A stretch of DNA of 64,000 nt from NCBI RefSeq assembly GCF_003449015.1, contig NZ_QRGD01000010.1, positions 1 to 64,000 of the forward strand, written 5' to 3'. Numbering within the stretch: position 1 is the stretch's first letter; every line of letters starts with the position of its first letter. The position numbers and the translations under genes are program-made. Source of the DNA: Aureibaculum luteum (lineage in GTDB: Bacteria; Bacteroidota; Bacteroidia; Flavobacteriales; Flavobacteriaceae). This document shows positions 1 through 42,952 of this stretch, piece after piece. Under the pieces are notes generated by a model. The model saw only the letters and a program-made list of their open reading frames with translations. It searched no databases and was not told where the DNA came from.

Positions 1-1175
1 ATGACCTTACTCCACTCTTTTGTTCTTTCTGTTTCTATACTTAAATTTATAACTATATTTATAAATGCTAACTTAAGATATACGTATTCCAAGATCAAAT
101 CCTAATAAAAAAACACTTATTTTCTTAAGCTGCATGTTGCTGAAGAACCACATAAGGTGTTCCTCTTTTTACAACTGCAAAAGCTCTAGCTATTAGTTTA
201 TTTCTAACATTATTTATGGCTAACATTTTATCTTTTCCTTCTGCCAATTTTCTTTTATAATACAGTCTTAATTCGGTGTCATGTTGTATTGCTGATACAC
301 TTGCCATACTCAGCAAACTTTTCATTTTTCTATCTCCTAAATAATGACATTGTTTTCTGCGATGTATACTAGTACCTGAGCGATGCTCAAATGGTGCTGT
401 ACCACAATAGCTAGAAAAGGCTCGCCAACTAGCAAATCGAGTGAAATTTCCTGTGTGATAAATTAGTTGACATGCAACTACTAAACCAACACCTTTAAGA
501 CTGGATAGTAATTCGTAATTCTTGTTCATAGAATCATCTGCTGTGATTATCTCTTTAATTCTATCTTCTATACCTTTTACTTGCTTAGATAAGTAATCTA
601 TACTGCGTTTTAAGCTAATACATCCAAAATCTGTTGTTGGACTTGACAATAGTACTTTCATCTCTTTTAAAGTGCCTTTAAGTCCTGCATTGTTTCTTAC
701 TAATTGATCTCTTAAAGCTAGTAATCTGCCTAACTCTAAATGAGACATACTCTTTACTGTACTTGGCTGTAACTCTTCTCTGTAAAGCCATGCGTATCTT
801 GCTATAAGTTTGGCGTCTAACTTATCTGTTTTCTCTTTTACAACTCCGCTGGAGCGTTTTATTTTTAATGGACTTTCTTCTACATAAACAATATCTTGAC
901 TATGTAAATAAAGTGCTAACTTTAAGGAGTAATAACCTGTATTCTCAAAACAGTAAAAAACCTTGCTTGTTTTTGTCTGTTTCAAAACCCATTTTAATAG
1001 TCTGTTATATCCTATTAAATCATTAACAAACTCTTTGTGGACTTGTGCTTGATAACAATAAGCATCAATTGTTTTTTTTGATACATCAATTCCTACTACT
1101 TCTTCGTAATTTTTCATATTTTTACAATTAGTGTGAATAAATATGTTGCGTTAACTACTTCCTTTATCGGGAGAA
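1..1175 (-). mobile_element. IS110-family insertion sequence (right end outside window)
   Basis: The transposase fills most of this stretch. The upstream end cannot be placed exactly. Sequence shared with a second locus (39177 onward) starts at about 1175, which leaves at most some 58 bases between the transposase start and the flank. IS110-group elements carry their guide (bridge) RNA in a long 5' non-coding region, whereas IS1111-group elements carry it on the 3' side, so the short 5' side suggests the IS1111 subgroup. In that case the RNA would lie in 1-124 and beyond the window edge. No terminal repeats were identified by eye. Boundaries are inferred. Confidence 0.55.
125..1117 (-). CDS. 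IS110-family transposase (DEDD recombinase)
   Basis: This 330-residue protein has the family's two-part layout. The N-terminal RuvC-like DEDD domain begins with GIDVSK (Asp11), continues with FENTG near residue 58 and has the EKTDKLDAK segment near residue 100. The C-terminal transposase-20 domain has LKGVG followed by a YCGTAPFEHRSGTS block with the expected catalytic Ser near residue 247. These enzymes move circular intermediates using a structured guide RNA. The length is normal for the family and the frame is intact, so the element may be active. Directly upstream lies a repeat that recurs in the 39 kb region, so the insertion site is itself repetitive DNA. Confidence 0.93.
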   Translation of the reverse strand: MKNYEEVVGIDVSKKTIDAYCYQAQVHKEFVNDLIGYNRLLKWVLKQTKTSKVFYCFENTGYYSLKLALYLHSQDIVYVEESPLKIKRSSGVVKEKTDKLDAKLIARYAWLYREELQPSTVKSMSHLELGRLLALRDQLVRNNAGLKGTLKEMKVLLSSPTTDFGCISLKRSIDYLSKQVKGIEDRIKEIITADDSMNKNYELLSSLKGVGLVVACQLIYHTGNFTRFASWRAFSSYCGTAPFEHRSGTSIHRRKQCHYLGDRKMKSLLSMASVSAIQHDTELRLYYKRKLAEGKDKMLAINNVRNKLIARAFAVVKRGTPYVVLQQHAA

Positions 1176-1326
1176 TTGTCTCCTGGTATTCCAAATGGTT
1201 CTTGGCAACTTGATAGAAAGAGAGGACTCGTACGTGTAAGGGAGCGTTATTCTAAAACACGTTATAGTTCTCCTCTTTTTCTATCTAAAGATATTTATTA
1301 CAAACTAAAGAAACACGTTGTAACCA
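1175..1326. repeat. Left part of dispersed cassette-associated repeat
   Basis: The first 90 or so bases match 39177-39265 with moderate divergence: both begin GGTATTCCAAATGG and share an AGAGGACT..TACGT block. The stretch ends in AACACGTTGTAACCA (1312-1326), whose last ten bases are the exact inverse of TGGTTACAAC at 1876-1885. An open frame can be read through it, but that frame is only translated repeat DNA leading into the small gene that starts at 1341. I infer that this is the left shoulder of a site into which a one-gene unit was placed. Confidence 0.55.
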
Positions 1327-1340
1327 ATTTGAGAAACCAA

Positions 1341-1802
1341 ATGAAACTGGATAAAAATCGGAAATTATTATTAATTCTAATAGTCGGAATTTTATGTTTC
1401 TATGGTTTTAAAAATTACGCTGAAAAAGTAAAAGACGAACATAGTATTGCTACCAGTATTTCTTCCAAATTTTTTGACTTTAATACGTTTGAATTGAAAG
1501 TGGACTCAAATCTGAACCTATCTGATTTTAAAGTTGTGAATCAAAATAGCGGAACGACAATTTTTGCGAATGGAAAAAACCGAAAAGGAATTGATAATGA
1601 TTATGGACATCGATTATTTGAATTGTATTATAAAGACCGAAAACTATATGAATTTGGACACTTTTCAACAAATAATTGGTACACATTTGACTATACTCTG
1701 AATTTAAATAACCGAATCGAACCTGAATTGAAAATAATGAGAGGAAATAATGAATCTTATAATGACTTTTTTTACAAAAGGTTTGAATATAATGAAAGTT
1801 GA
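1341..1802 (+). CDS. Small N-terminally anchored membrane protein, probably nonsense-truncated
   Basis: The family is not recognised. Translation from ATG 1341 gives a typical short positively charged start (MKLDKNRK) and one hydrophobic segment (about residues 8-21), then a polar domain outside the membrane. A longer frame open from 1176 only reads through repeat DNA. The frame ends at TGA 1800-1802 after FEYNES, but the same frame continues with 22 protein-like codons (KLDRISYLTLGKEVYNVKEISE) to TAA at 1869-1871. A TGG-to-TGA change would explain this, so the original product was about 176 residues. The gene lies exactly between inverted GTTGTAACCA/TGGTTACAAC ends. Confidence 0.55.
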   Translation: MKLDKNRKLLLILIVGILCFYGFKNYAEKVKDEHSIATSISSKFFDFNTFELKVDSNLNLSDFKVVNQNSGTTIFANGKNRKGIDNDYGHRLFELYYKDRKLYEFGHFSTNNWYTFDYTLNLNNRIEPELKIMRGNNESYNDFFYKRFEYNES

Positions 1803-1871
1803 AAACTCGACAGAATTAGTTATTTAACTTTAGGAAAAGAAGTTTATAACGTTAAAGAAATTAGCGAATAA

Positions 1872-2030
1872 AAACTGGTTACAACAAAGTACTGTGGTAA
1901 TAAAAAAGTAAAAATATAATAATCCCTCACTAAATTGCTACTATAGGCATCATCGCATATTAGTCCTGATTTTACTATTCCAAAAACTTATTTAATAGTT
2001 TATTACAAACTGCTTTTACTGCTAATTTTT
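1872..2030. repeat. Right part of dispersed cassette-associated repeat
   Basis: It starts one base after the original stop codon of the preceding gene. Bases 1881-1900 (ACAACAAAGTACTGTGGTAA) are identical to 39260-39279, and 1998-2014 matches 39378-39394 with two differences, so about 150 bases are related. At the 39 kb locus the left and right parts are contiguous. Here they are separated by the small membrane-protein gene. Confidence 0.65.
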
Positions 2031-2312
2031 GTTCTTTCCTATTACTACAATTCGCTCGTAAAAATCTCGGCAAGCTTTATTATATTTACAGGCATAAAAC
2101 CGCACATAAATCATAAATCACAAAACTTTTGATTGCCGTATTCATTCCAAAATAAAAAACATTTAAAAAGCTAAATTTTCTTTTCTAGATATTGCTAGAT
2201 TATTTAAAAAACAAGAAGTCATAATTGAATAAAGCCCGTCGTTAACAATGTCTATGAAATTATTGTCCAATTTTAAGACAAGACATAGATAATAACAAGA
2301 ACAAAACAAACT
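2031..2312. other. Intergenic region without recognisable gene
   Basis: This AT-rich stretch separates the cassette-like repeat from the RapA gene. I see no credible reading frame, tRNA or terminator in it. It must hold the promoter of the RapA gene, but no convincing TAnnTTTG box was found. Confidence 0.5.
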
Positions 2313-5138
2313 ATGGAGATTTTTTTTCCAAATCAAAGATATACAAGTAAAGGTGAACCTGATTTAGGGGTTGGTATTTTAAAAGAAGCCAGCAAAGAAA
2401 AAGTACAGATCTATTTTCCGTTGTCTAATGAAACACGATTATACGCAGTTGAAAGTGCCCCTTTACAACGCGTTGTTTTTAAAATTGGTGATACAATAAT
2501 GGATGCAAAAGGGCAACCATTACTTATAGAAAATGTTGAAATAGTCAACAATCTATACATCTATTATGGCAAAGACAAAAAAATAACTGAGGCAGCACTT
2601 GGTGATGTGTCAGCAAATCACAGTGTCGATGACCGTCTTTTTTTGGGAGATGTAGACACGCCTCAAGCCTTTGCTTTACGCAGAGAAACATTAGAACACG
2701 AATATAAACGGAGATTATCGCCTGTACATGGATTTGTAGGCGGAAGAATTGATCTTATTCCACATCAATTGTATATTGCACATGAAGTGAGTTCAAGATA
2801 TGCTCCTCGTGTCTTACTATCTGACCAAGTTGGGCTTGGTAAAACTATTGAAGCTTGCTTAATCCTTCATCGTTTATTATTAAGCGGACGCATTTCTAGA
2901 GTGCTCATACTTGTTCCTGAATCGTTAATACATCAATGGTTTGTTGAAGTTTTACGTCGATTTAATATGTGGTTTAATATTTTTGATGAAGAACGTTGTG
3001 CAGCACTTGATGACAATGCACCTGATGGTAATCCTTTTTTAGACAATCAACTTATTATTTGTAGTACTGAATTTTTAGCCGGTTCTGCCAAGCGAACGAA
3101 GCAAGCAATTTCTGCTAACTGGGATATGCTTGTGGTTGATGAAGCTCATAATCTGGAATGGTCTGTTAACAACATAAGCCCAGAGTATCGAATTGTAGAA
3201 CTTTTGAGTAAAGTTGCAAAAGGGTTATTACTGCTTACGGCTACGCCAGAACAATTAGGCGTAGAAAGTCATTTTGCACGACTCCGATTACTTGATCCTA
3301 ACAGATATGAAAACTATGATGATTTTATAAATGAATCTTCAAATCATAAAATCATTGCCTCTATTGTTGAAAAATTACATCTAGGAAAACCCCTTGAATC
3401 TAAGGATACTAAAATTTTAGAATCTCTTTTCTCAAAAGAAAGCATACAATTAGTACTTGATGGAAAAAATGAAGCCAAGGATAATCTTATTGAAAATCTA
3501 CTAGATCAACATGGTCCAGGCAGAGTATTATTCCGAAATACTAGATCTGGAATGAGTGGCTTTCCAAAACGAAAGGCACATTTAATTCCCATAAAAGTAG
3601 TAAAAGACAAGGAGCTGTGGTTAGAACGTTTAAGCAATGAATTTGCTTATGAAATGACTCCAGATGAAACTGCAAATAATCAACAATTTTGGTTTGCCAA
3701 AGATCCACGTGTACAGTGGCTGTTAACCATTATAAAAGAGCTTTATCCTGCAAAAGTACTACTCATTTGTAAGCAGAAAGAAAAGGTGCTGGCTTTAGAA
3801 GAAATCTTAACAAAACGTGGAAATTTTAAAGTTGGTGTATTTCATGAAGATCTTACTATAGTGCAACGCGATAGAAATGCGGCATGGTTCTCAGAACCCG
3901 ATGGTGCTCAAATACTGCTTTGTTCAGAAATAGGAAGTGAAGGACGAAATTTTCAATTTGCTCATCACCTCATCTTATTTAATTTGCCCTTGAATCCTGA
4001 ATTGTTAGAACAGCGAATAGGACGCCTAGACAGGATTGGTCAAAAAAAAGATATTCATATTCATATTCCCTACCTTACCAATAGTCCACAACATATACTT
4101 GTACGATGGTTTCATGAAGGCCTGAATGCCTTTGAAAACAACATTGAAGGTGGAAATAAAATTTCTAAATTATTTAGTAAACGGCTACTTGAACTATCAA
4201 AACTAAACACTAAAACTGAACATAATTCAGCATTAGAAGCTTTGATTACGGAAACGTCAACTTTCCAAAAAGAGCTACAAAAAAGCTTAGCCGATGGCAG
4301 AGATAAATTACTAGAAATGAATTCTTTTCGCCCAAAAATAGCCACAAAACTAATCAAACAAATTCAAGCGGAAGACAACGATAAAAGTCTTGAAAATTAT
4401 ATGACAAAAGTCTTTAATCATTTCGATATTGAAATGGAAGACCTCGTTTCTCGAAGCTATTATTTAAAACCTACGTCTCTAATCACTGAAATTTTTCCGT
4501 CGATACCCATGGAAGGTATTGGCGTTACATTTGACAGAAAACATGCTCTTAGCAGAGAGGAAATCAGTTTTCTAAGTTGGGATCATCCCATGACCACCGA
4601 TGTCATAGATATGGTGTTAAGTTCAGGTACAGGTAGTGCTAGCTATGGAGTTCTAAAGGGAAGCAAAAGCCCTGGTCTTCTACTTGAAATCATTTTTATT
4701 CTTGAAACACCAACACGACAAAACATAGCTGTAGACCGTTTTCTACCCAACACACCACTAAGAGTTGTTGTAGACCATGCGGGTAATGAGGTTACAGAGG
4801 AGTATCTTGTTGACGTATTAAACAAAAAATTAATACCTGGTCAAATAGACGCTTTACTGGATAATGAAGCCATCGTTGAAACACTATTGCCCAATATGAT
4901 AGCAGTGGCTACAAAACTAGCTAAAGAGATGAGCAGCACAGCAATAGCAAATGGTTTAGATAGTATGAACTTAACGTTGAATCATGAAATTGACAGACTG
5001 AAACTATTACAAGAGAAAAACAATACTATAAGACCAGAAGAAATTCAAATAGCTTGCAATGACCAAATAGCTCTAACAACAATCATTAAAAACGCACGTG
5101 TAAGGATGGATGCTATTCAATTGATCAGAAAGGAGTAA
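2313..5138 (+). CDS. rapA: RNA polymerase-associated SNF2 ATPase RapA (HepA)
   Basis: RapA is a Swi2/Snf2 translocase that binds RNA polymerase and promotes its recycling from stalled post-termination complexes. The 941-residue protein follows E. coli RapA (968 residues) from end to end. The N-terminal Tudor-like region (about 1-110) keeps the LG(V/L)G and TRLYA segments. The helicase core has DQVGLGKT (171-178, Gln replacing the usual Glu), LLVVDEAH-type motif II (DEAH 276-279), LLTATPEQLG, FHE and SEIGSEGRNFQFAHH, and QRIGRLDRIGQ as motif VI. A C-terminal RapA-specific domain of about 300 residues follows. RapA is chiefly known from Gammaproteobacteria, so its presence next to an insertion sequence and cassette repeats suggests acquisition by transfer. 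Dpd-system helicases are distant relatives, but no other dpd gene is nearby. Confidence 0.9.
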   Translation: MEIFFPNQRYTSKGEPDLGVGILKEASKEKVQIYFPLSNETRLYAVESAPLQRVVFKIGDTIMDAKGQPLLIENVEIVNNLYIYYGKDKKITEAALGDVSANHSVDDRLFLGDVDTPQAFALRRETLEHEYKRRLSPVHGFVGGRIDLIPHQLYIAHEVSSRYAPRVLLSDQVGLGKTIEACLILHRLLLSGRISRVLILVPESLIHQWFVEVLRRFNMWFNIFDEERCAALDDNAPDGNPFLDNQLIICSTEFLAGSAKRTKQAISANWDMLVVDEAHNLEWSVNNISPEYRIVELLSKVAKGLLLLTATPEQLGVESHFARLRLLDPNRYENYDDFINESSNHKIIASIVEKLHLGKPLESKDTKILESLFSKESIQLVLDGKNEAKDNLIENLLDQHGPGRVLFRNTRSGMSGFPKRKAHLIPIKVVKDKELWLERLSNEFAYEMTPDETANNQQFWFAKDPRVQWLLTIIKELYPAKVLLICKQKEKVLALEEILTKRGNFKVGVFHEDLTIVQRDRNAAWFSEPDGAQILLCSEIGSEGRNFQFAHHLILFNLPLNPELLEQRIGRLDRIGQKKDIHIHIPYLTNSPQHILVRWFHEGLNAFENNIEGGNKISKLFSKRLLELSKLNTKTEHNSALEALITETSTFQKELQKSLADGRDKLLEMNSFRPKIATKLIKQIQAEDNDKSLENYMTKVFNHFDIEMEDLVSRSYYLKPTSLITEIFPSIPMEGIGVTFDRKHALSREEISFLSWDHPMTTDVIDMVLSSGTGSASYGVLKGSKSPGLLLEIIFILETPTRQNIAVDRFLPNTPLRVVVDHAGNEVTEEYLVDVLNKKLIPGQIDALLDNEAIVETLLPNMIAVATKLAKEMSSTAIANGLDSMNLTLNHEIDRLKLLQEKNNTIRPEEIQIACNDQIALTTIIKNARVRMDAIQLIRKE

Positions 5139-11885: not shown

Positions 11886-11989
11886 ACATGCAAAAAACTC
11901 AAATCATAGAGATGATTATGCAATTTTTTTATACGATTATAAGGATTATTTATGATGATGAGTGAATAGTCTTATTTAACTAAGAAGTA

Positions 11990-12112
11990 TTGTTTAAGCG
12001 ACTCAATCAGCAAATATAAATCGCGTAGAAAATCTGCTAGTCCCGAAGCTTCGGGATTCGTTAGTAGGCTAGATCTGGCAATATATTATATACGGATTAC
12101 AACAGTTTTTTT
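11990..12112 (-). repeat. Dispersed 3'-end repeat, copy 1
   Basis: Read on the minus strand, this starts at the stop codon of the lipoprotein gene and matches 40231-40360 on the plus strand over about 120 bases. Shared blocks are CGT(A/G)TATAAT, ACGAATCCCGAAGC, CGGGACT, GATTTTCTA and GTTTATATTTGCT-like. The centre is a perfect palindrome, CCCGAAGCTTCGGG (12042-12055). In both copies it follows a short accessory gene in the same orientation, so it moves or is kept with the gene's 3' end. Confidence 0.75.
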
Positions 12113-39058: not shown

Positions 39059-39176
39059 TTAGAAAGTTATTGTAAATAGGAATACGATGACTCACATCAA
39101 TGTATTCCTATTGAAATTTTCTTGCAAAAAAAATTGAAAACTTTGTACTATAGGTAATTATTTGGCGTAATTAATG

Positions 39177-39405
39177 GTATTCCAAATGGTCCTAAAGCAA
39201 CCTAAGAAAGACAAGAGGACTGATACGTATAATGGAACTATAATTCAAAATAACGTGGTACAACAAAGTACTGTGGTAAAAAACAAGTAAAACTTCATTA
39301 ATTTTTCAATAAAGTACTTCTGTAATTCTGGTCGTTAGCCACTCTTGATTTAGTAATGATATAAGCCTGTTTTAAAAGTTTATTGCAAACCGCTATTAAA
39401 ATTAA
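39177..39405. repeat. Uninterrupted copy of the dispersed cassette-associated repeat
   Basis: This is the contiguous version of the repeat that is split by a gene at 1175-2030. Its left half (39177-39265) is related to 1175-1265. Bases 39260-39279 are identical to 1881-1900, and 39378-39394 matches 1998-2014 with two differences. No gene is present in the region from 39059 to 39633. Confidence 0.68.
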
Positions 39406-39633
39406 CTTTTCAAACTACATTTTCACCGCATTTACTACCCAAATTTTCCATTTGCTTTATTGCCATTTTATTTATACATTTGAAAGGATGTCGCTAAATA
39501 ACCCCCCTACTCCATCACATTTGAAGTGCTGTTTGCTTTAGCTTCATAATTCAAGAAAAACATAGTTGTAACTAAATTCAATATAACTATAATATGGTTA
39601 TACATATGTTCTACGCAAGCTGAAATCACTTAT

Positions 39634-40026
39634 ATGGAAACACAAACTCTCGAAAATAAACTGACGGAAATTCGGGATACTTTAATTGAGCTTGAAAGAC
39701 TAAAAACCGACATTAGATTTATATCAAATAAGGAAACCGAATATTTTAACAAAATAGTAGAAAAATCAGCTTTTTTCTATCGAATTTATAGAAATTCAAT
39801 TAAGCTATTTGTGATTGATATTTGTAAATTAATGAACCCAAATGAAGATTTTAGTTTATTAAAAACCTTAAATTTTATCCAATCAAATCGAAAAAGAATA
39901 GAATGGAAAAGAGAATTAAAATCGGATAGGATAAATGAACTTATTTTTAAAATTGAGATTCTGAACTCTGAACATTTAGAAAGTTTTAAAAATTTGAGAG
40001 ATAAACATTACGCTCATAATGACTAG
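39634..40026 (+). CDS. AbiU2/HEPN-like protein, possibly truncated
   Basis: A 130-residue helical protein without signal. It starts with a Glu/Lys-rich coiled-coil-like segment and ends in LESFKNLRDKHYAHND. The R-x4-6-H-like RDKHYAH motif is the hallmark of HEPN/AbiU2-type toxin RNases used in abortive infection and toxin-antitoxin systems. The protein stops directly after the motif, whereas related domains usually continue for several tens of residues, so the C-terminus may be lost to the IS3-like sequence that follows. A GTTGTAACTA element (39565-39574) precedes it and the 40.2 kb repeat follows. Confidence 0.5.
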   Translation: METQTLENKLTEIRDTLIELERLKTDIRFISNKETEYFNKIVEKSAFFYRIYRNSIKLFVIDICKLMNPNEDFSLLKTLNFIQSNRKRIEWKRELKSDRINELIFKIEILNSEHLESFKNLRDKHYAHND

Positions 40027-40084
40027 TTTAGCCCCTTATAAGTTCGGAGTGTTCTTTTAAATTTCATAATACTACATTTGAGAT

Positions 40085-40231
40085 ATGAAATATAAGAAAT
40101 GGACTTTGAATCAGAAGTTAGAAATATTAACAAGATCTGAAGAAATACTTATGACTGAATTAAAAAAAGGACCGGATTTAGGAAAATTACAAATGGTCAG
40201 AGATATAACTTTAGGAAAAAAGCCTGCGTAG
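40085..40231 (+). pseudogene. Fragment of an IS3-family orfA, fused to unknown tail
   Basis: A 48-codon frame beginning MKYKKWTLNQKLEIL..SEEI, the usual N-terminus of IS3-family OrfA proteins in Bacteroidetes. After about 21 residues the similarity ends and an unrelated tail (LMTELKKGPDLGKLQMVRD..) runs to a stop just at the beginning of the dispersed repeat. The 60 bases before it may be the insertion-sequence end. A deletion remnant is likely. Confidence 0.45.
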
Positions 40232-40360
40232 AACACCGTGTATAATTAATTACTTGTTCACTGCCTATTTACGAATCCCGAAGCGTCGGGACTCGCGGAT
40301 TTTCTATCTGGTTTGTATTTGCTAAATTAGTTACTTATCCACGCAACTAACCAAGAACTG
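40231..40360 (+). repeat. Dispersed 3'-end repeat, copy 2
   Basis: Related over about 120 bases to 11990-12112 read on the opposite strand. The central palindrome is CCCGAAGCGTCGGG (40277-40290), one base from the perfect form at 12042-12055. Nothing else is recognisable between here and the beta-lactamase gene at 40485. Confidence 0.75.
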
Positions 40361-40484
40361 AGTTGAAAAACAAACTTTTTATTCATTAAATATATACACT
40401 ATCTTACTAGGCTCAAAATATGATTATTTCGTACTTTAATACACGAAAGTCCACACACAAATACATTGGCATTAATAAAACAAG

Positions 40485-41324
40485 ATGAAACTATTTTATT
40501 TAGCACTCTTATTAATTCTATTTTTTTCCTGCATTGAAAAGAAGACCATCCCTGATAAAAAAGAAGTTAAAGTAACAGACCAAGAAATTGTAGTTAAAGA
40601 ATTTCAAACCATTATTGATTCTGCCAATGTCAAAGGAGCAATTTTAATTTATGATTTTGAAAAAAACAAGTACTATTCAAATGATTTCCAATGGGCTCAA
40701 AAAGGAAACTTACCAGCTTCTACCTTCAAAATAACCAATTCAATTATAGCACTTGAAATAGGGATAGTTGAAAACGATAGTACACTTTTTAAATGGAACG
40801 GAGAAAATAGAAGGCTTAAGGCTTGGGAACAGGATTTGACCTTTACAAATGCTTTTCGTTTATCGTGTGTTCCTTGCTATCAAGAGATAGCACGAAAAAT
40901 TGGAGTAAAAAAAATGAAGGAATATCTAGACAAACTTGAATACAGAAATATGATAGTTGACGCTACCAACATTGACCTATTCTGGTTAGAAGGAGCATCT
41001 CGAATTAATCAATTTCAGCAAATAGACTTTTTAAAGCGGTTTTATAAATCTGAATTACCAATTTCTGAACGTACTGAACAGATCATGAAAAGAATGATGG
41101 TAATTGAAAAAAAGGATGCGTACAAACTTAGTGGAAAAACAGGTTGGTCAATCAGTAATGGAAACAATAATGGCTGGTTTGTGGGGTATATCGAATCTCA
41201 AAATAAAACTTATTTTTTCGCCACAAATGTTGAACCGAAAGAACAATTTGATATGAATAGGTTTCCAATGATTAGAAAAAATGTGACCTATAAAGCATTT
41301 GAACAATTGAGAATAATTAAATAA
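40485..41324 (+). CDS. Class D beta-lactamase, lipoprotein
   Basis: A serine beta-lactamase of the OXA class. The lipobox LFFSC puts Cys16 at the N-terminus of the mature protein, so it is membrane-anchored. The active-site motifs are all present: STFK (79-82), SCV (127-129), YRN in place of YGN (153-155), Trp167 in FWLEGASRINQFQQIDFL, which guards the carboxylated Lys82, and KTG (218-220). The 279-residue length is normal. Closest in motif style to OXA-48-like and intrinsic flavobacterial enzymes. It sits alone in the cassette-like island, preceded by the 40.2 kb repeat. Actual antibiotic spectrum cannot be read from sequence. Confidence 0.92.
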   Translation: MKLFYLALLLILFFSCIEKKTIPDKKEVKVTDQEIVVKEFQTIIDSANVKGAILIYDFEKNKYYSNDFQWAQKGNLPASTFKITNSIIALEIGIVENDSTLFKWNGENRRLKAWEQDLTFTNAFRLSCVPCYQEIARKIGVKKMKEYLDKLEYRNMIVDATNIDLFWLEGASRINQFQQIDFLKRFYKSELPISERTEQIMKRMMVIEKKDAYKLSGKTGWSISNGNNNGWFVGYIESQNKTYFFATNVEPKEQFDMNRFPMIRKNVTYKAFEQLRIIK

Positions 41325-41380
41325 ATGCTCTGGTACGATAAATAATTTATCGCTAGTTCTAGACTATTCATAAAAATTAT

Positions 41381-41419
41381 TTCCAATTTTCTATTTCATT
41401 TTTATTTCCTAAATTGGAA
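41381..41419. promoter_or_regulatory. Inverted repeat upstream of decarboxylase gene
   Basis: TTCCAATTT (41381-41389) and AAATTGGAA (41411-41419) form exact nine-base arms 21 bases apart. It could be the terminator-like end of the beta-lactamase unit or an operator. No T run follows directly. Confidence 0.35.
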
Positions 41420-41461
41420 GCTTAATGGGTAATTAACCAACTAGGCTTTAAAACAATCGTA

Positions 41462-42952
41462 ATGACGAATAAACGTGAGAATTCAATTGAAATTAGCAAA
41501 ACCGAATTTCGTAAAATAGGTTATGAACTCATTGATACAATTTCTGACTTTTTTGATGATATTTCAGAAAAACCCATCACAACAAGTAAGTCTCCAAAAG
41601 AATTACAAAAAAAATTAGGTATTTTATCATTACCAGAAAATGGATTGCCAGCAGAAGAATTACTATCGAAAGCTTCTAAATTACTCTTTGAAAATTCATT
41701 ATTTAATGGTCATCCAAAATTTTTTGGATTTATAACCTCATCGGCAGCACCTATTGGAGCCTTGGCCGATTTGTTAGCCTCTTCAGTTAATGCAAATGTT
41801 GGCGGACAAATACTGAGTCCGATGGCGACAGAAATAGAAAAACAGACCATAAAATGGTTGGCAGAGTTTATAGGAGTCTCACCTAATTATGGAGGCATAT
41901 TAGTCAGTGGAGGAAACATGGCAAATTTCACTGCCTTTTTAGCTGCAAGAACGGCTAAATCACCTAAAACCATAAAAGAAAATGGACTTTCTAGCAGTTC
42001 TAAAATGTTAATTTCCTATTGTTCAAAAGCTACGCATACTTGGATTGACAAAGCTGCTATTTTATTTGGACATGGCTCAAATTCTATCCGATGGATTCCA
42101 ACGGATACCGCTAATAAAATGAATATAGAAATCTTAGAGCAAACTATAAAAGAAGATGTAAAACAAGGACATCAACCATTTATGGTTGTAGGTACTGCTG
42201 GAGACGTAAGTACTGGTGTTGTAGATAACCTCGAAGCCATTGCTTCAACATGTAAAACGCACAATTTATGGTTTCATATAGATGGTGCCTATGGTATTCC
42301 AGCTGCTGTTATTCCTGAATTAAAAGATTTATTTGTAGGGATTAAAGAAGCCGATTCTATCGCATTAGACCCTCACAAATGGCTTTATAGTGCTTTAGAA
42401 GCGGGTTGTACTTTGGTAAAAAACCCACAGCATCTTATAGACACCTATAGCTCGCATCCTGAATATTATAATTTCAGCTTAACGGAAGAAGGTGGTTCTT
42501 TAAACTACTTTGAATATGGACTGCAGAACTCTCGTGGTTTTAGGGCTTTAAAAGTATGGCTGGCGTTACAACAAATTGGAAGTAATGGTTATGTAAAATT
42601 GATCAAAGAAGATATAGCATTGTCCAAATACTTCTATGAACTGGCAAATAAACATACAGAATTAGAACCCGTAACTCAAAATTTAAGTATTGCAACGTTT
42701 AGGTATGTACCTAAAAACTATCAAGAACAAGGTGAAAAAAGAGAGGCCTATTTAAACACTTTAAATGAAGAATTAGTGAACAGTGTGCAAAACGGAGGTG
42801 AACTATTTTTATCAAACGCAATTGTAGAAAACAAATACTGCTTACGTACCTGTATCGTAAACTTTAGAACTACAAAAAAGGATATAGAAGATAGTATAGA
42901 AATAATAGTAAAAGAAGGAAGAAAATTAAACAATTTAATGCAGGATATGTAA
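41462..42952 (+). CDS. Group II PLP-dependent amino acid decarboxylase
   Basis: A 496-residue member of the aromatic-L-amino-acid/glutamate decarboxylase family. Visible residues include His192 stacking on PLP (KATHTW), FHIDGAYG (Asp274 binds the pyridine nitrogen) and ALDPHKWLY with the Schiff-base Lys306. The family includes DOPA, tyrosine, tryptophan and diaminobutyrate decarboxylases. No transporter or partner gene nearby specifies the substrate. It lies at the right border of the accessory island. Confidence 0.92.
   Translation: MTNKRENSIEISKTEFRKIGYELIDTISDFFDDISEKPITTSKSPKELQKKLGILSLPENGLPAEELLSKASKLLFENSLFNGHPKFFGFITSSAAPIGALADLLASSVNANVGGQILSPMATEIEKQTIKWLAEFIGVSPNYGGILVSGGNMANFTAFLAARTAKSPKTIKENGLSSSSKMLISYCSKATHTWIDKAAILFGHGSNSIRWIPTDTANKMNIEILEQTIKEDVKQGHQPFMVVGTAGDVSTGVVDNLEAIASTCKTHNLWFHIDGAYGIPAAVIPELKDLFVGIKEADSIALDPHKWLYSALEAGCTLVKNPQHLIDTYSSHPEYYNFSLTEEGGSLNYFEYGLQNSRGFRALKVWLALQQIGSNGYVKLIKEDIALSKYFYELANKHTELEPVTQNLSIATFRYVPKNYQEQGEKREAYLNTLNEELVNSVQNGGELFLSNAIVENKYCLRTCIVNFRTTKKDIEDSIEIIVKEGRKLNNLMQDM

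What the first reader, a model, noticed from the sequence alone, without database searches (positions are those of the whole stretch)
1312..1885. Gene bracketed by inverted 10-base ends inside a repeat that is uninterrupted elsewhere
The small membrane-protein gene (1341-1871 with its original stop) lies between GTTGTAACCA (1317-1326) and its exact inverse TGGTTACAAC (1876-1885). The flanks of this unit match adjacent sequence at 39177-39405, where no gene is present and the junction reads AACGTGGTACAACAAAG. This looks like an occupied and an empty version of the same site, as expected for insertion of a one-gene unit. No integrase is visible, and I do not know a described element with these ends.
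Basis: partly seen in the sequence, partly recalled or inferred. Interest (0 to 1): 0.72.

Follow-up and report, generated by a model that had tools for sequence, protein, structure and literature searches.

The report
Integron-like gene cassette, atypical integrase
The bracketed gene is one cassette of an integron-like gene-shuffling system found in many flavobacteria, which seems to be run by a recombinase lacking the domain thought to define integron integrases, so it could open the origin of integrons to experiment.

Summary
The 10-base inverted ends are real but are not transposon ends. GTTGTAACCA/TGGTTACAAC is the private start/end label of a gene cassette. Relatives of the gene sit in other flavobacterial genomes among unrelated small genes separated by folded attC-like sites. 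In 16 arrays, 93 of 103 cassettes have a start complementary to their own end (at least 6 of 7 variable bases), against 5 of 119 for the two halves of one site. Arrays start 26-135 bp from a tyrosine recombinase gene in those 16; 31 of 40 recombinase loci carry sites, 0 of 20 control regions do. This recombinase clade lacks the IntI 'additional domain' (43 of 43) and stands apart from IntI and Xer; 0 of 249 genomes pass the IntI cut-off, while 213 of 249 hold sites. The '39.2 kb empty site' is something else: both its flanks are IS110-family sequence, and one IS110 type inserts into these sites. I read this as a new, AD-less integron variant. Architecture is shown; recombination is inferred.

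The parts
125..1117 (-). IS110-family transposase (element called IS110a here)
   Evidence: Pfam PF01548 and PF02371
1118..1310 (-). noncoding end of IS110a with a hairpin seen by eye (1212-1285), probably ending ...TTACAAACTAAAG at 1310
   Evidence: sequence; end placed by analogy with IS110b ending TTACAAACTTAAG|CCGTG; inference
1311..1319 (+). remaining right end of the upstream attC-like site, AAACAC|GTT
   Evidence: resembles attC right ends such as CAAACACGTTG; inference
1317..1326 (+). cassette start label GTTGTAACCA (R' core GTT plus 7 private bases)
   Evidence: 10/10 complement of the end label
1341..1802 (+). cassette gene, small protein with a hydrophobic N-terminal stretch, no Pfam family; early stop at 1800-1802
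1876..1885 (+). cassette end label TGGTTACAAC (R'' inverse core AAC)
1887..2145 (-). decayed IS110b element inserted in this cassette's attC-like site after AACA; right limit approximate
   Evidence: 78% similar to L009, whose complete IS110b (Pfam) splits a site as AACA|...|CCGTGTATA
39175..39256 (.). remnant of an IS110a-type noncoding end
39257..39265 (+). part of the roughly 14 bases between the two IS110 remnants, perhaps a deleted cassette
   Evidence: sequence; no matching cassette start upstream; inference
39266..39405 (-). IS110b remnant
39608..40234 (+). second cassette of the window up to its inverse core: start label GTTCTACGCA (39608-39617), end label TGCGTAGAAC (40225-40234), gene 39634-40026
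   Evidence: labels read from the stretches printed; gene
40227..40368 (-). attC-like site of that cassette (bottom strand); right arm replaced by IS110-type sequence from about 40346 (by eye)
   Evidence: model R1 77.9 bits, E 4.8e-14
40485..41324 (+). transpeptidase-domain protein, class D beta-lactamase-like (class recalled), lying between two attC-like sites
   Evidence: PF00905, E 3.3e-35; sites
41332..41462 (-). degenerate attC-like site
   Evidence: R1 38.8 bits, E 6.9e-5
11965..12102 (+). degenerate attC-like site; no AAC core found near its end
   Evidence: R1 47.3 bits

Best explanation
The unit is a gene cassette of an integron-like system of Flavobacteriaceae. Each cassette is typically one small gene plus a 3' attC-like site. 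Its first 10 bases (GTT plus 7 private bases) are complementary to the 10 bases that begin its own site. Proposed working: a tyrosine recombinase of an IntI-related clade without the IntI additional domain recognises the folded bottom strand of the site, recombines at the CGTT core, releases a cassette as a circle whose private label lets R' and R'' pair over 10 bp, and inserts it at an attI-like site beside the recombinase gene, so arrays grow from there. Shown by sequence: cassettes, labels, sites, platform, one-sided arrays, exact cassette duplication. Inferred: folding in the cell, strand, crossover point, catalysis by this enzyme. In the window no recombinase of this kind was seen near the cassette; the site after it was hit by an IS110 element that targets such sites, and another IS110 element lies directly before it.
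For: Gene relatives in 7 loci with different neighbours (read by eye for 5 loci); start and end labels intact in L002, L003, L007 and the window, degraded in L001, L004, L005, not seen in L006. L007 holds a cation-efflux cassette twice, 974 identical bases, borders at CGTT. Start/end complementarity 93 of 103 (at least 6 of 7) against 5 of 119 within one site and 4.65% of random pairs. Bottom strand folds better in 110 of 118 sites; 7 of 23 and 9 of 42 predicted pairs show two-sided changes in A4 and A5. R1 gave 153 and R2 142 matches over 40 recombinase regions and 20 controls, none in the controls (2 of the 40 overlap loci that supplied training sites). First cassette start matched 6-7 of 7 bases in 16 of 16 arrays, 26-135 bp from the recombinase. 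Own clade, support 98/93. Residues I take as the catalytic R, K, H, R, H, Y (roles recalled) are invariant in the 6-row alignment.
Against: No recombination was observed. 9 of 40 recombinase loci show no site; 7 of these have a contig end within about 2 kb, but in L098, L111 and L112 it is on the gene's 5' side, and L118 and L124 have none near. Sites also lie far from recombinases: in the own genome on many contigs, and some genomes have sites with no recombinase at 1e-60, for example G071 with 13. Attribution to this enzyme rests on position. 10 of 103 cassettes fall below 6 of 7. The additional domain is reported necessary for IntI activity (reference title). Two of the 9 IS110b junctions lack a matching start. 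Palindromes with arms of 7 or more precede attI in 7 of 13 co-directional and 0 of 3 divergent arrays.
Confidence: 0.85

Rival explanations
1. A canonical integron whose IntI simply scores low: an ordinary new member.
For: IntI1 is annotated at 23 of 30 spread rows shown of at least 5000 plasmid records, about 30% identity; TIGR02249 is the top NCBIfam match by E-value for 3 of 5 recombinases scanned.
Against: 0 of 249 genomes pass the IntI cut-off (stretches scored singly, at most 8 candidates a genome, and none of the 14 control genomes passed, so there was no positive control); linker 20-26 residues in 43 of 43 against 61-63 in 4 of 4 IntI; separate clades; classical core fits 9 of 119 R' and 10 of 119 R''.
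Confidence: 0.1
2. A single-gene transposable unit or MITE with 10-bp terminal repeats, moved by an unlinked transposase.
For: Short inverted ends around one gene; no recombinase of this kind noticed in the window.
Against: The ends differ from cassette to cassette and match only within a cassette; units lie head to tail with one site between them; duplication border at CGTT.
Confidence: 0.02
3. IS110-family elements mobilise the gene as cargo between them.
For: IS110 sequence on both sides here and at 39.2 kb.
Against: L002, L003 and L007 have the same gene with the same borders next to attC-like sites, and I noticed no IS110 in the flanks printed (not searched by profile); IS110b splits a site with both halves recovered in L009 and L012, so it is the invader.
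Confidence: 0.03

Closest known systems
Integrons with IntI integrases (class 1 and sedentary chromosomal integrons)
   Same: Platform of recombinase plus attI plus head-to-tail cassettes; attC-like sites with R and L boxes predicted to fold best as bottom strand; core and inverse core of one cassette complementary.
   Different: Recombinase lacks the additional domain and forms its own clade; R box is CGTT[AG]N5[AC]A with a 10-nt private label instead of GTTRRRY; in 26 of 31 loci with sites the array lies 3' of and in line with the recombinase (read); attI is a short palindrome in 7 of 16 arrays.
CALINs (attC clusters without integrase), including that of Polaribacter phage P12002L
   Same: R1 finds 5 sites with E below 1e-5 in P12002L; the paper reports that one P12002L attC was recombined by IntI1 (PMC9892861, passages).
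   Different: Here 31 of 40 recombinase loci have adjacent sites, and the recombinase is of a non-IntI clade; which phage sites were tested I could not match to my hits.
IS110/IS1111-attC insertion sequences (group recalled; seekRNA and bridge-RNA papers PMC11187229 and PMC11208160 seen in a search listing only)
   Same: IS110 transposase; insertion at a fixed point of attC-like sites.
   Different: Target sites are of the flavobacterial type; insertion at AACA|CCGT.
Xer recombinases and IS91-partner tyrosine recombinases
   Same: Same enzyme family, also without the additional domain; linker 21-28 residues in the 4 compared.
   Different: Separate branches in the tree, though the order among them is weak; no attC arrays known to me (recall).

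Membership tests
Canonical integron | IntI with the additional domain | tested here: not met
   0 of 249 genomes over the TIGR02249 cut-off; linker 20-26 aa in 43 of 43 against 61-63 in 4 of 4 IntI; IntI4 residues 182-242 have no counterpart
Canonical integron | attI beside the integrase gene | tested here: met
   first cassette start found 26-135 bp from the recombinase in 16 of 16 arrays; not in this window
Canonical integron | attC sites folding as single strands, bottom strand preferred | tested here: met
   by prediction only: 110 of 118; two-sided changes
Canonical integron | RYYYAAC / GTTRRRY consensus boxes | tested here: not met
   10 of 119 R'' and 9 of 119 R' fit
Canonical integron | cassettes as discrete units with complementary core and inverse core | tested here: met
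   93 of 103; exact duplication in L007
Canonical integron | integrase catalyses attI x attC recombination on one strand | not testable with these tools
   needs an assay
Canonical integron | cassette promoter | not tested
   no promoter scan was run
IS110-family element that targets attC (IS110b) | IS110 transposase | tested here: met
   PF02371 and PF01548 in the complete copies of L009 and L012; the window copies are decayed remnants
IS110-family element that targets attC (IS110b) | insertion at a fixed point in attC sites | tested here: met
   9 distinct junctions after AAC, 7 of 9 with a matching cassette start upstream; both halves of the site in L009 and L012
One-gene transposon / MITE | constant terminal repeats and an empty site | tested here: not met
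   ends are cassette-specific; 39.2 kb is IS110 sequence

The most novel reading that the evidence does not exclude
A second lineage of integrons, possibly branching before IntI gained its additional domain: an AD-less recombinase recombines folded single-stranded sites, and each cassette carries a private 10-nt label that pairs fully only in the free circle. Full pairing in the circle but not in the array would favour insertion over re-excision, giving built-in directionality.
Probability: 0.5. Interest if true: 0.92.

Novelty: new variant of a known kind. Interest (0 to 1): 0.8.

Why it matters
Integrons are described as rare in Bacteroidetes: IntegronFinder 2.0 names one complete case there, Salinibacter ruber (PMC9024848, passages), and its use on a Tenacibaculum genome reported none (PMC10013915, passages; I did not scan that strain). 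Here 213 of 249 genomes of one family hold attC-like sites at E 1e-3 or better and 156 of 249 hold the recombinase at E 1e-60 or better. If the recombinase drives the arrays, a large gene-shuffling reservoir may have been missed because detection relies on the IntI domain and classical attC models, and the idea that the additional domain is needed to handle folded sites can be tested. Such a recombinase and a cassette of this type already sit on a mobilizable Flagellimonas plasmid.

Tried and rejected
Occupied/empty site at 39.2 kb: rejected, both flanks are IS110-family sequence. Rfam: 0 matches at gathering threshold in the window and six loci. Viral contigs: 11 stretches matched a pattern, none encodes a relative of the gene. 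Plasmids: no match to the gene's protein. Canonical IntI: 0 of 249 over the cut-off. A folding script ran over a wrong interval and was stopped by the time limit; redone. R1 was trained on 11 sites and R2 on 6; some come from L048 and L049, which overlap L096 and L095, so 2 of the 40 test loci are not independent. For one search I used 16 of the 31 loci with sites, choosing those with four or more; two genomes appear twice (G040 and G159). One search folded 118 of 119 sites (one too long). Paper searches: judged from listings, plus passages of ten papers, I saw no description of such a system in Flavobacteriaceae; [quoted passage not shown] bioRxiv and most subscription journals are not held, so novelty in print is not proven.

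Full report
1. The observation. The two 10-mers are exact inverses at 1317-1326 and 1876-1885 and are the only exact copies in the window; with neighbours they form a 14-nt repeat at 93%. The gene between them stops at 1800-1802; relatives L001 and L002 continue to the position of window 1869-1871. The similarity to 39.2 kb is real, but its left part lies in the noncoding end of the IS110-family element whose transposase is 125-1117, and its right part is the end of a second IS110 type.

2. What the gene's relatives show. A scan of genome contigs gave 7 loci with relatives of the protein, six titled as Flavobacteriaceae, Flavobacteriales, Nonlabens, Tenacibaculum or Lacinutrix and one as Bacteroidia. 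In L002, L003 and L007 the gene starts after CGTTGTAACCAATTTGAG and ends with ACTGGTTACAAC, followed by a 100-150 bp imperfect palindrome and then other sequence; L001, L004 and L005 show degraded versions and L006 none. Neighbouring genes differ among the five loci whose ORFs I listed. In L007 a cation-efflux gene (PF01545) is present twice, in 974 identical bases bounded on both sides by CGTT. That is how cassettes behave.

3. The sites. 22 sites were read from the loci; the bottom strand folded better than the top in 21 of 22. Two alignments (11 and 6 sites, bottom strand) gave consensus hairpins with two-sided changes at 7 of 23 and 9 of 42 predicted pairs. Models R1 and R2 were built from them; Rfam has no match at gathering threshold. 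In the window's own genome R1 gives 52 matches and R2 19 at E up to 0.1, three of the R1 matches inside the window.

4. The recombinase. IntI's profile (TIGR02249) gives no match over its cut-off in 249 genomes of the family, but nearly all (248) have lower ones; the listed best ones mostly cover model positions up to about 180, with separate pieces from about 238. That search scored stretches singly and at most 8 candidates a genome, and no control genome passed the cut-off. In L048 and L049 such a gene (277 aa) stands beside a YebC gene (PF01709) and is transcribed away from an array that begins after ...GTATATAGTAAC|GTT or ...GTATATACTAAC|GTT. A profile of six such proteins (four from genomes where sites were then seen near by, two chosen by score) finds 156 of 249 genomes at E 1e-60 or better, mostly one copy each in the rows listed; R1 finds sites in 213 of 249 at E 1e-3 or better, some with one weak match only. 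Across the phylum 32 of 247 genomes match at 1e-6: 14 of these are the own genome, its genus or family, 18 lie outside. The window's genome has two copies, on contigs C4 (280 aa) and C46 (374 aa).

5. Test of linkage. I took the first 40 recombinase loci with start coordinate 12000 or more (about 19 kb each where the contig allowed) and 20 control regions 150 kb away in the same genomes. At E up to 0.1, R1 gave 153 and R2 142 matches; none lies in a control. 31 of 40 loci have at least one site. Of the 9 without (L097, L098, L101, L104, L111, L112, L115, L118, L124), seven have a contig end within about 2 kb of the gene; in L098, L111 and L112 that end is on the 5' side, which fits a lost divergent array for the first two (by their place in the tree) but not for L112; L118 and L124 have no near end. 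By reading the tables, the sites of one locus lie on one side and one strand. In 26 of 31 loci the array lies 3' of the recombinase in the same direction (in L103 about 5 kb away); in L095, L096, L099, L100 and L102 it is divergent, the classical geometry. Sites also occur far from any recombinase, for example on many contigs of the own genome.

6. Test of cassettes. In 16 arrays with 119 sites I compared the 7 bases after GTT at each cassette start with the complement of the 7 bases before AAC at its own end: mean 6.40 of 7, at least 6 in 93 of 103. The two halves of one site, which belong to neighbouring cassettes, give a mean of 2.81, at least 6 in 5 of 119; random pairs reach 6 in 4.65%. 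So the label is private to the cassette. The median distance between sites is 646 bp. In L120 the spacings and labels of a two-cassette block repeat. The expected start of the first cassette was found at 6-7 of 7 bases in 16 of 16 arrays, 26-135 bp from the recombinase gene: from its stop in 13 co-directional arrays, from its start codon in 3 divergent ones. This marks attI. A palindrome with arms of 7 or more lies in the 45 bases before it in 7 of 13 co-directional and 0 of 3 divergent arrays, against 4.1% of random 45-mers. The bottom strand is more stable in 110 of 118 sites, by 2.89 kcal/mol on average. Classical consensus boxes fit only 9 of 119 (R') and 10 of 119 (R'').

7. What the recombinase is. 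Pfam: PF00589 with PF13495 in the five scanned. NCBIfam: TIGR02249 gives 188-206 bits for these five against a cut-off of 265; the 374-aa protein passes NF040815, named XerA-type / integron integrase. Against PDB, the profile matches IntI4 (2a3v) in two pieces with residues 182-242 of IntI4 unmatched. The segment holding the additional domain is 20-26 residues in 43 of 43 recombinases against 61-63 in 4 of 4 IntI and 24-28 in the own XerC and XerD. In a tree of 51 proteins the clade has 98/93 support, IntI 100/99, Xer 100/99; only four IntI, two Xer and two IS91 partners were included, and the branch order between IntI, the IS91 partners and this clade is weak (83/49). Papers tie IntI to the additional domain (PMC9668308 and PMC2426708, passages); [quoted passage not shown]

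8. The IS110 elements. Nine distinct junctions of the form AAC|AAAG[TA]ACTG[TA]G were found in the loci searched, eight in the own genome and one in its relative G119; in 7 of 9 a cassette start complementary at 9 or 10 of 10 positions lies upstream, the exceptions being 39.2 kb and L024. In L009 and L012 a complete element (IS110 transposase by Pfam) splits a site, with CCGTGTATA or CCGTATAAA on its far side. So this IS110 type targets the cassette sites. In the window the focal cassette's site is cut this way at 1886/1887. The upstream site keeps only its right end after IS110a. At 39.2 kb remnants of both element types enclose about 14 bases; I read this as a deleted cassette, which is not proven.

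9. Other cassettes in the window. 39608-40234 has labels complementary at 10 of 10 positions (read) and a 130-aa gene. The class D beta-lactamase-like gene 40485-41324 lies between that site and a degenerate one.

10. How it works. Shown: architecture, labels, platform, cassette duplication. Inferred: the recombinase excises and inserts cassettes through the folded bottom strand. Support from others: an attC site of Polaribacter phage P12002L was recombined by IntI1 (PMC9892861, passages), and R1 finds five sites with E below 1e-5 in that phage, though I cannot tell which were tested. The private label suggests that a free circle has a fully paired R stem and an array site does not.

11. Verdict. 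An integron-like system with an AD-less recombinase: it works like an integron, but fails two defining tests of the canonical one. Nine paper searches showed me no prior description for this family of bacteria; preprints were not searchable.

Noticed in passing
window 1-80: Sequence resembling the outer end of another IS110-type element (...TTGTTCTTTCT...AACTTAAG), just before IS110a; the contig starts here.
   Followed up: no
L009, L016 and window 1301-1319: Three places in the own genome share the odd right end CAAACTAAAGAAACACGTTG in place of the usual CATACACAAACACGTT; perhaps a scar of IS110a.
   Followed up: no
L043:1896-2240, L044:4628-5023, L045:3008-3355, L047:1958-2320: A small cysteine-rich (zinc-finger-like by eye) gene lies next to the recombinase and is transcribed away from it; no Pfam or NCBIfam match for the L043 and L044 copies.
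   Followed up: partly
L169:9901-12813: A mobilizable Flagellimonas plasmid carries this recombinase, an erm(F) gene and a dihydrofolate-reductase-family gene that looks like a complete cassette (labels 6 of 7).
   Followed up: partly
L176 (Polaribacter phage P12002L): Several sites of this type lie in a lytic flavobacterial phage, some beside methyltransferase genes.
   Followed up: partly
L120:11358-16367: Spacings (1455 and 716 bp) and labels of a two-cassette block occur twice in tandem.
   Followed up: no
L007:1229-3436 and 3541-4614: A cytosine methylase with an Arm-DNA-binding domain next to an MvaI/BcnI-type endonuclease, within the array.
   Followed up: no
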